The notes below the pieces were generated by a model. That model ran no database searches. It was not told the DNA's origin and worked only from the letters and a program-made list of their open reading frames with translations. Below, piece after piece: positions 57,857-59,013 of a stretch of 64,000 bases of DNA. The stretch's first letter is position 1; the number at the start of each line of letters is the position of its first letter. A program made the translations under genes and the position numbers. This DNA comes from Natrinema salsiterrestre (GTDB taxonomy: Archaea; Halobacteriota; Halobacteria; Halobacteriales; Natrialbaceae), in NCBI RefSeq assembly GCF_029502005.1, contig NZ_JAMQOT010000002.1, positions 62,001 through 126,000 on the forward strand. Reading direction: 5' to 3'.

Positions 57857-57947
57857 CGAGGGCTCGACTCGCGTTCGGTCCGTTTCGACCAGTTTTCGCC
57901 GCCCGTTCTCCGAGACGACTAAGTAACAGCGGCTCTCTTGTCACGAT

Positions 57948-58442
57948 ATGAGTCTGGGACAGCGTGTCTCGAGCGACCACCAGCTGACCCGATTGCTCCA
58001 GATCGGGGTCGTGCTGGAGGAACTCGTCGAGTCACGCGCCGCCCACCACATCGACTCGCTCCCGCCGGAAGAGCGAGCGGAATTCGACGAAGAGGTGGAA
58101 GAGTTGCTCGCCGAAGCCGCCGCGGAGTCGGCCGAACACCGCGAGCGACTCGAGGCGCTGATCGACGATCTCGAGGCTGAGACGGTCGGATACGAAGAGA
58201 TCAACGCACTGGTCGACGCACAGTACGGCCCGCCGGAGGACACGGACGGCGTGCTCTACGATCAACTGGCGAACGAGGAGACGGCCTACAAGTTCTACGA
58301 CGACCTGATCGACGCGATCGAGGCCTCCGAGTCAGAGTTCGCGGTGGATCGCGACCGACTCCTCGAGACGCTGTACAGTATCCGCGAGGAAGAAAAAGAA
58401 GGGGTCGAGGAAGTGACCGAGATCATGGAGCACAGAGCATGA
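57948..58442 (+). CDS. Ferritin-like domain protein (164 aa)
   Basis: A helical bundle protein with Glu/His-rich positions in EERAEFDEEVEELLAEAAAE, EHRERLEALI and EETAYKFYDDLIDAIEASE. This is the rubrerythrin/ferritin-like fold found after suf genes in haloarchaea. It may store or buffer iron for cluster assembly. Its stop overlaps the next ORF (ATGA, 58439-58442). Confidence 0.8.
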   Translation: MSLGQRVSSDHQLTRLLQIGVVLEELVESRAAHHIDSLPPEERAEFDEEVEELLAEAAAESAEHRERLEALIDDLEAETVGYEEINALVDAQYGPPEDTDGVLYDQLANEETAYKFYDDLIDAIEASESEFAVDRDRLLETLYSIREEEKEGVEEVTEIMEHRA

Positions 58443-58582
58443 TCGGGGCGAGAGCTACGTCGATCACGGCGGCCGCGATCGGTGGTCGGTCACCGTTCGA
58501 GACGCGCATCGACACCCGAATCCGGAACCGCCAGCGAGCGATCGACGCGACGCGCAGTCGCACTGACGGAGGGACGCTATGA
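58439..58582 (+). CDS. Possible 47-aa basic protein in the Suf/DtxR operon
   Basis: The ORF starts with ATGA overlapping the ferritin-like stop and ends with TGA inside the ATGA of the DtxR start (58579-58582), so it fits exactly between its neighbours. The product has nine arginines and only four acidic residues, with the core ETRIDTRIRNRQRAIDATRS; this is unusual for a haloarchaeon. No family is recognised. Exact tiling supports it; the short length and lack of known homologues limit confidence. Confidence 0.4.
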   Translation: MIGARATSITAAAIGGRSPFETRIDTRIRNRQRAIDATRSRTDGGTL

Positions 58583-59013
58583 ACACTGCCGATCAATATC
58601 TCAAGGCGATCTACCTGGCACAGCGAATCGAGGACGGCCCCGCATCCACCGGCACGCTCGCGGACTTGCTCGAGGTGAGTCCGGCCAGCGTCAACGAGAT
58701 GATCGGGAAACTCGAGGAGCGAGAGCTCGTCGACCACGAGAAGTACAAGGGGGCGAGTCTGACCGACGAGGGACTCGAGCGCGCCCACAACGCCCTCCAG
58801 ACGTACTGCATCATCGAGCGGTTCCTCGCGAACGTCCTCGAGGTCGACGAGTTTCGCGACGAAGCCCGCGCACTGGAGAGCGTCATCGACGATACCGTCG
58901 CGGAGCGACTCGACACGATCATCGATCGGCCCGACCAGTGTCCCGACTGTTTCGACGCCGAGCAGGACTGCTGTGAGCTACTCGAACTCGAGGCCGGCGG
59001 TCACGCGGACTGA
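58579..59013 (+). CDS. DtxR/SirR family metal-dependent regulator
   Basis: The 144-residue protein has a winged helix (QYLKAIYLAQRIEDGPASTG and VSPASVNEMIGKLEERELV), then the metal-binding/dimerisation domain (ERAHNALQTYCIIERFLANV) and a cysteine-rich tail (QCPDCFDAEQDCC). It probably represses iron-dependent genes. The GGAGGG six bases before the ATG is a good ribosome binding site. Its operon position makes the suf genes candidate targets. Confidence 0.9.
   Translation: MNTADQYLKAIYLAQRIEDGPASTGTLADLLEVSPASVNEMIGKLEERELVDHEKYKGASLTDEGLERAHNALQTYCIIERFLANVLEVDEFRDEARALESVIDDTVAERLDTIIDRPDQCPDCFDAEQDCCELLELEAGGHAD

What the first reader, a model, noticed from the sequence alone, without database searches (positions are those of the whole stretch)
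58439..58582. 47-codon basic ORF fitted exactly between the ferritin-like and DtxR genes
It overlaps both neighbours by ATGA, so it is in translational register with the operon. It encodes nine arginines in 47 residues, against the acidic background of all other proteins. It could be a nucleic-acid-binding partner of the metalloregulator or a translational coupler whose product is incidental.
Basis: partly seen in the sequence, partly recalled or inferred. Interest (0 to 1): 0.55.

Follow-up and report, generated by a model that had tools for sequence, protein, structure and literature searches.

The report
Bridge ORF relaying ribosomes between genes
A short reading frame between an iron-protein-like gene and a metal-regulator gene in salt-loving archaea is kept open through many insertions and deletions while its protein sequence drifts freely, so it most likely exists only to carry the ribosome from one gene to the next.

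Summary
In detail: a 47-codon ORF (58439-58582) overlaps both neighbours by ATGA. In one genome this is not beyond chance: 6 of 70 eligible gene pairs on the same contig show it. Across genomes it is remarkable. In 216 of 216 scored loci of the order, no junction between the ferritin-like stop and the DtxR start exceeds 6 nt: 45 loci have the genes touching or adjacent, 166 have one bridging ORF (3-74 codons in the 191 loci measured) and 5 have two in relay. Between independent sister pairs, 32 of 32 length differences are multiples of 3; in the neighbouring spacer 10 of 32. The peptide is not conserved: pN/pS 0.81 against 0.07 and 0.03 in the flanks, with substitutions spread evenly over codon positions. 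I conclude that the ORF is translated by termination-reinitiation and selected only for being open, keeping dtxR coupled across an insert; the peptide is incidental. MIRUs and integron short ORFs are precedents for the architecture. New are the frame-only selection, its scale, tandem relays and the archaeal, non-mobile setting. Translation was not measured, and one named genome lacks the bridge (13-nt gap).

The parts
57948..58442 (+). Upstream gene, 164 aa; predicted ferritin/Dps-like helical bundle
   Evidence: ORF; match in 29 of 29 genus genomes; no Pfam or NCBIfam hit above cut-off; AlphaFold2 mean pLDDT 88.6; best Foldseek matches are Dps/bacterioferritin chains, TM about 0.6-0.7, best E 0.014, none at E 0.001 or below
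58427..58430 (+). GGAG, Shine-Dalgarno-like, 8 nt before the bridge ATG, inside the end of the upstream gene
   Evidence: Sequence; GGAG or GGAGG in 127 of 135 bridge loci, background about 16%
58439..58442 (+). ATGA junction 1: stop of the ferritin-like gene and start of the bridge ORF
   Evidence: ATGA at 143 and GTGA at 13 of 156 bridge ORF starts
58439..58582 (+). Bridge (relay) ORF, 47 codons
58568..58572 (+). GGAGG, Shine-Dalgarno-like, 6 nt before the DtxR ATG, inside the bridge ORF (reads as Asp-Gly-Gly)
   Evidence: Sequence; GGAG, GGAGG or GGAGGT in 105 of 135 bridge loci, background about 8%
58579..58582 (+). ATGA junction 2: stop of the bridge ORF and start of dtxR
   Evidence: dtxR start ATGA in 134 and GTGA in 18 of 152 bridge loci
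58579..59013 (+). DtxR/MntR-family metalloregulator, 144 aa
   Evidence: PF01325 E 9.7e-18 and PF02742 E 1.8e-12, both above the gathering score; PDB relatives
57857..57947 (+). sufD to ferritin-like spacer, used as control: length free of phase in relatives
   Evidence: mod 3 classes 39/33/27 among the positive gaps of 100 loci; 10 of 32 sister-pair differences are multiples of 3

Best explanation
The ORF is a ribosome bridge. Ribosomes finishing the ferritin-like gene terminate at ATGA, re-initiate on the overlapping ATG with help of the GGAG just upstream, translate the bridge, terminate at the second ATGA and re-initiate on dtxR with help of GGAGG. The bridge keeps dtxR translationally coupled to the ferritin-like gene although DNA lies between them; direct termination-reinitiation in Haloferax volcanii fails at gaps of about 20 nt. 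Selection acts on the two junctions, their Shine-Dalgarno motifs, the phase and the absence of stops, not on the peptide. Shown here: anatomy, conservation of phase and openness, absence of detectable amino-acid selection, conserved SD-like motifs. Inferred: that it is translated, that the same ribosome passes, and that dtxR depends on it.
For: 216 of 216 scored loci have an unbroken chain with no junction above +6 nt: 45 without a bridge, 166 with one, 5 with two (191 loci: 39, 148, 4; 25: 6, 18, 1). Of the first 171 loci, 135 have gaps of 10 nt or more, in 45 distinct lengths; 133 are 1 mod 3 and the other two are double relays, which need 0 mod 3. Among 63 path-disjoint sister pairs with one bridge each, 31 have equal lengths and 32 of 32 differences are multiples of 3; control spacer 10 of 32. 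At least 78-79 length changes on the tree. pN/pS 0.81 in 20 independent pairs (other two frames 1.00 and 0.89), flanks 0.071 and 0.031; substitutions by codon position 57/61/64. Conserved SD-like motifs at both starts. Bridges of 50 nt or more rarely hold an AT-rich 8-mer (1 of 105; 63 of 191 upstream of the ferritin-like gene; 11 of 191 coding stretches). In H. volcanii coupling is lost at 22-23 nt (PMC10666635, section read), and SD motifs did not drive initiation in the tested 5'-UTR (PMC3986360, abstract).
Against: No translation or mRNA data. One named genome (L361, Halegenticoccus tardaugens) has a 13-nt gap and no bridge. dtxR keeps a strong SD of its own, so independent initiation is not excluded. 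A stricter TATA-like pattern was uninformative about promoters (2 of 105 bridges, 9 of 191 upstream regions, 1 of 191 coding stretches). Thr and Ala are over-represented even against a dinucleotide model (Thr 0.163 vs 0.111), and pN/pS of 0.81 is slightly below the other frames, so a weak residue preference may exist. 107 of 216 matching genomes outside the family, and 11 of 123 inside it, were not read.
Confidence: 0.86

Rival explanations
1. The ORF encodes a functional small basic protein, for example a nucleic-acid-binding partner of the DtxR regulator.
For: Open with both overlaps in 29 of 29 genomes of the genus; nine Arg in the window copy; residual similarity within the genus (TRID...RR...TDGG in many copies); a Thr/Ala excess.
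Against: pN/pS 0.81 and even substitutions over codon positions; 3-74 codons with little shared sequence between genera; absent in 45 of 216 loci; Arg no higher than in shuffles; no Pfam or NCBIfam match.
Confidence: 0.05
2. Coupling works by RNA unfolding: elongating ribosomes melt a structure that hides the dtxR start, and fresh ribosomes then initiate.
For: An accepted alternative model of coupling (PMC12548453, abstract); the dtxR SD is strong and could recruit ribosomes itself.
Against: Bridge RNAs are not more structured than mononucleotide shuffles (mean z +0.66, first 60 loci with gaps of 60-200 nt; structure at the start itself not tested); unfolding does not by itself require -4 junctions at both ends or bridges of 3-5 codons.
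Confidence: 0.12
3. The ORF is a sensing leader peptide: stalling within it, e.g. under metal stress, tunes dtxR translation.
For: Position before a metalloregulator; mgtQ in Salmonella is an intergenic ORF that promotes mgtB translation (PMC8092293, title and outline only).
Against: No codon or motif outside the junction and SD regions was seen to be kept across genera (by eye), and 3-codon versions exist.
Confidence: 0.04
4. The bridge is a MIRU-like mobile or repeated insert that carries its own coupled ORF.
For: MIRUs insert at start codons with an ORF coupled at -4 (PMC12548453 section 11); in family f14 the bridges contain recurring SD-plus-start units.
Against: The window bridge has one full-length copy in its own 4.79-Mb genome; the next match is 51 nt at 81%. 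An f14 double bridge (L470) has one full-length copy in its genome (71% complete) and only partial matches of about 30-90 nt in three other f14 genomes.
Confidence: 0.04
5. Chance: an unselected gap happens to read open.
For: The geometry alone occurs in 6 of 70 eligible pairs on the contig, and four of the other five are poorly conserved.
Against: Phase kept in 32 of 32 sister-pair changes; 216 of 216 scored loci unbroken.
Confidence: 0.01

Closest known systems
Termination-reinitiation at -4 (ATGA) gene overlaps in Haloferax volcanii and E. coli (PMC6728339 abstract and one search passage; PMC10666635 abstract, sections 5 and 7, Discussion part 1)
   Same: Same junction, same class of organisms, SD motifs nearby; 45 of 216 loci are this plain touching or adjacent form.
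   Different: There two genes touch. Here a third, apparently product-less ORF (or two) spans up to 217 nt and provides two or three such junctions in series.
Mycobacterial interspersed repetitive units, MIRUs (PMC12548453 section 11)
   Same: An insert carries an ORF coupled at -4 to the neighbouring gene, limiting the damage of insertion.
   Different: MIRUs are repetitive and apparently mobile; this bridge is single-copy in its genome, differs between genera and evolves by in-frame indels; relays of two occur.
Short ORFs in integron attI1 (ORF-11) and attC sites (PMC8876359, passages read)
   Same: A short ORF receives or delivers ribosomes to the next gene by termination-reinitiation; [quoted passage not shown]
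   Different: Recombination-site sequences in bacterial mobile arrays; here a fixed chromosomal gene pair of archaea with comparative evidence for selection on frame alone.
mgtQ, intergenic ORF between mgtC and mgtB in Salmonella (PMC8092293, outline only)
   Same: Intergenic short ORF that promotes translation of the downstream gene.
   Different: By its section titles mgtQ acts through stem-loops and specific acidic codons; the bridge shows no conserved codons and no excess structure.

Membership tests
Termination-reinitiation coupled gene chain | Stop and next start overlap or lie within a few nt at every junction | tested here: met
   216 of 216 scored loci, final junctions -4 to +6; one exception, +13, among 80 named loci
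Termination-reinitiation coupled gene chain | Downstream translation depends on upstream translation | not testable with these tools
   Needs reporter assays
Termination-reinitiation coupled gene chain | SD motif near the re-initiation site (contribution varies from gene to gene) | tested here: met
   127 of 135 and 105 of 135 bridge loci
Protein-coding gene for a functional small protein | Purifying selection on amino acids | tested here: not met
   pN/pS 0.81, codon positions 57/61/64, 20 pairs
MIRU | Repeated, dispersed copies in the genome | tested here: not met
   One full-length copy in own genome; one in the f14 bearer of L470
[quoted passage not shown]
   Geometry only
DtxR/MntR family (downstream gene) | Iron-dependent repressor DNA-binding and dimerisation domains | tested here: met
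   PF01325 and PF02742 above gathering score
Ferritin-like superfamily (upstream gene) | Four-helix bundle fold related to ferritin/Dps | tested here: inconclusive
   No sequence family hit above cut-off, no convincing PDB sequence match; model resembles Dps/bacterioferritin, TM about 0.7 but best Foldseek E 0.014; di-metal ligands not examined

The most novel reading that the evidence does not exclude
These are frame-only genes: ORFs whose single selected property is being open and in phase, forming a ribosome relay that can be lengthened, shortened or doubled freely. Each re-initiation step loses a fraction of ribosomes, so the number and quality of relay steps sets the ratio of ferritin-like protein to metalloregulator, and evolution tunes regulator dose by adding or removing steps. 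Such relays may be a general archaeal way to tolerate insertions inside coupled operons; a second conserved case lies at the S26-like/DUF5305 pair.
Probability: 0.3. Interest if true: 0.78.

Novelty: new variant of a known kind. Interest (0 to 1): 0.64.

Why it matters
It is a natural experiment, replicated across an order, on a disputed question: whether post-termination ribosomes scan across gaps or need touching junctions. In the loci read, these haloarchaea leave no more than 6 nt untranslated here (13 nt in one named genome), however much DNA is inserted. It also shows that a conserved short ORF need not mean a functional peptide, which matters for small-protein annotation: conserved position, openness and ribosome footprints would all be expected of this apparently product-less ORF.

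Tried and rejected
Excess of bridges on the contig: none. On C20, 6 of 70 eligible pairs against 24-36 of 300 in offset controls, of which offset +3 reads the same frame without needing a start codon. So the geometry by itself proves nothing. Conservation of the other five geometric cases in the genus, own genome counted in each: 1 of 26 loci with both genes found out of 30 given, one genome entering twice; 1 of 2 out of 29; 11 of 28 out of 29, mostly a loose TTG start 27 nt upstream of the called start and one exactly at it; 3 of 14 out of 29, one of the 14 a spurious match. Only the S26-like/DUF5305 pair held, 4 of 4 orthologous loci.

RNA structure as the reason for the insert: not supported, mean z +0.66. 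Internal promoter in the bridge: AT-rich 8-mers speak against it, but a TATA-like pattern was too rare everywhere to decide. A palindrome pattern for f14 repeats was mis-specified, with a 4-nt spacer where the unit has 5: its 7-18 hits per strand per genome against 1-5 for the reversed control say nothing about the unit. I replaced it by a DNA search with the whole L470 bridge. Stops in the +1 frame of bridges (132 of 132) are trivial, because the upstream stop lies there, and are not used.

Literature: ten searches of the open-licence library listed no paper whose title or abstract start describes this haloarchaeal bridge. Most subscription journals are not held, so absence in print is not claimed. 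The paper on archaeal DtxR regulons (PMC4285986) was not held.

Full report
What is there. The window is from a haloarchaeon whose nearest named relatives are mostly Natrinema species. After two SufB/D-type genes (the second matches SUFBD_core) comes a 164-aa gene (57948-58442), then the 47-codon ORF (58439-58582), then a DtxR-family gene (58579-59013). Both junctions are ATGA. The downstream gene has both DtxR domains. The upstream gene has no family hit above cut-off, but its predicted structure (pLDDT 88.6) matches Dps and bacterioferritin chains best (TM about 0.7, best E 0.014), so 'ferritin-like' is plausible rather than proven. H. volcanii TroR is HVO_0863 (PMC11349517, passages); that this gene is its orthologue is my recollection of the gene order, not tested.

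Is it more than chance? From one genome, no. I called genes on the whole contig and found the same geometry in 6 of 70 eligible pairs, no more than in offset controls (24-36 of 300). The Arg richness is also ordinary: 9 against 7.3 in shuffles, P = 0.29. Over 132 bridges Arg is 0.154 against 0.161 shuffled. My inference is that the contrast with acidic neighbours exists because the neighbours are under protein-level selection and this ORF is not.

Comparative evidence. I searched the genus (29 of 29 genomes match), the family (123 of 125) and an even draw of the order (279 of 293) with the upstream protein. I read the junction region in 112 of the 123 family genomes (all 29 of the genus) and in 109 of the 216 other matching genomes of the order: 79 from the better-scoring part of the list and, for the families still missing, 30 more chosen by family. 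Every family with a match has at least one locus read. Of the first 191 loci, 31 overlap directly by 4 nt, 1 by 1 nt, 6 have +2 nt and 1 has +6 nt; 147 have one bridge ORF ending in a -4 overlap, 1 has a bridge ending 2 nt before dtxR, and 4 have two bridges in relay. Of the 30 added late, 25 have a DtxR like that of the window: 6 direct -4 overlaps, 18 single bridges and 1 double relay. So 216 of 216 scored loci are unbroken, although the gene-to-gene distance reaches 217 nt. The other 5 (families f9 and f11, upstream protein 34-40% identical) have a DtxR with a longer N-terminus; taking the in-frame upstream ATG as start, which is my choice, 4 overlap the upstream stop by 4 nt and 1 begins 1 nt after it (sequences). 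I leave these 5 out of the count. The 156 bridge ORFs of the 191 loci run from 3 to 74 codons (median 26), start ATGA (143) or GTGA (13), and 156 of 156 stop with TGA.

Phase. Of the first 171 loci, 135 have gaps of 10 nt or more with 45 distinct lengths; 133 are 1 mod 3. The two that are 0 mod 3 turned out to be double relays, which require exactly that. On a tree of the flanking genes at least 78-79 length changes are needed among these bridge loci. In 63 path-disjoint sister pairs with one bridge each, 31 have equal lengths and 32 of 32 differences are multiples of 3, while in the sufD-to-ferritin spacer it is 10 of 32. If phase were free, 32 of 32 would have probability near 5e-16.

No detectable selection on the peptide. 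In 20 independent pairs of equal length, at least 20 codons and at least 75% identity, pN/pS of the bridge (ends trimmed) is 0.81, close to the other two frames of the same DNA (1.00 and 0.89); the flanking genes give 0.071 and 0.031. Substitutions by codon position are 57/61/64, against 47/24/343 in the upstream gene. Codon-position G+C also lacks the gene pattern (0.64/0.69/0.70 against 0.76/0.33/0.84). What is conserved are the ends: GGAG 8 nt before the first ATG in the window (GGAG or GGAGG in 127 of 135 loci) and GGAG-containing motifs before dtxR (105 of 135), against backgrounds of about 16% and 8%. The recurrent C-terminal Asp-Gly-Gly is the dtxR Shine-Dalgarno motif read as protein.

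Mechanism. In H. volcanii, termination-reinitiation drops to 40-60% at 13-14 nt and to near zero at 22-23 nt (PMC10666635, section 5). A lineage that gains tens of bases between the two genes therefore loses coupling unless the insert is itself translated from the first junction to the second. The data are what that predicts. AT-rich 8-mers, a crude sign of promoters, occur in 1 of 105 bridges of 50 nt or more, 63 of 191 regions ahead of the ferritin-like gene and 11 of 191 coding stretches; a TATA-like pattern was uninformative (2, 9 and 1). So dtxR probably depends on the upstream transcript (inference). Bridges are not more structured than shuffles (mean z +0.66 over 60 loci), which speaks against unfolding as the purpose. 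In family f14, bridges contain units that resemble the dtxR start itself (GAGGTGGTCGC followed by GTGAAC or ATGAAC, by eye). Four of the five double relays (L139, L170, L469, L470) are in f14 and the fifth (L494) in f12. This suggests origin by duplication of the initiation region in f14 (inference); the L470 bridge is not a dispersed repeat in the four f14 genomes searched.

Comparison with the known. The junction is the ordinary -4 overlap. The architecture of a short ORF handing ribosomes on has bacterial precedents: MIRUs (PMC12548453 section 11) and integron attI1/attC ORFs (PMC8876359 passages). The window bridge is not a dispersed repeat, so it is not a MIRU. New are the archaeal, non-mobile setting, the comparative demonstration that openness and phase are kept while the peptide drifts, and relays of two. 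I therefore call it a new variant of a known kind.

Limits. Nothing here measures translation. About half of the matching genomes outside the family were not read, and those read first were the better matches. A residual excess of Thr and Ala over a dinucleotide model is unexplained.

Noticed in passing
G000 contig C20:668222-668272 (outside the window; L220:8222-8272): A second bridge candidate, 16 codons (GTGA at both ends), between a weakly S26-peptidase-like gene and a DUF5305 gene; same length and geometry in 4 of 4 orthologous loci (own included), and a 12-codon one in the more distant L266.
   Followed up: partly
L139, L170, L469, L470 (family f14), L494 (family f12): Two bridge ORFs in series between the same two genes; in f14 with recurring SD-plus-start units.
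   Followed up: partly
Bridge ORFs of the order; window 58439-58582: Thr and Ala over-represented, and Arg, Pro, Gly, His and Gln under-represented, against a dinucleotide model; could reflect preference for easily translated or harmless peptides.
   Followed up: partly
L361: Halegenticoccus tardaugens: 13-nt gap, CTGA stop, no bridge; the only clearly broken chain seen.
   Followed up: yes
L374 and L377 (named Haloferax); also L163, L179, L182, L486 (unnamed): A minimal bridge of three codons (GTG plus two codons) between the same genes.
   Followed up: no
L513-L517 (families f9, f11): Distant relatives in which the DtxR homologue seems to have a longer N-terminus that brings its start into contact with the upstream stop.
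   Followed up: partly
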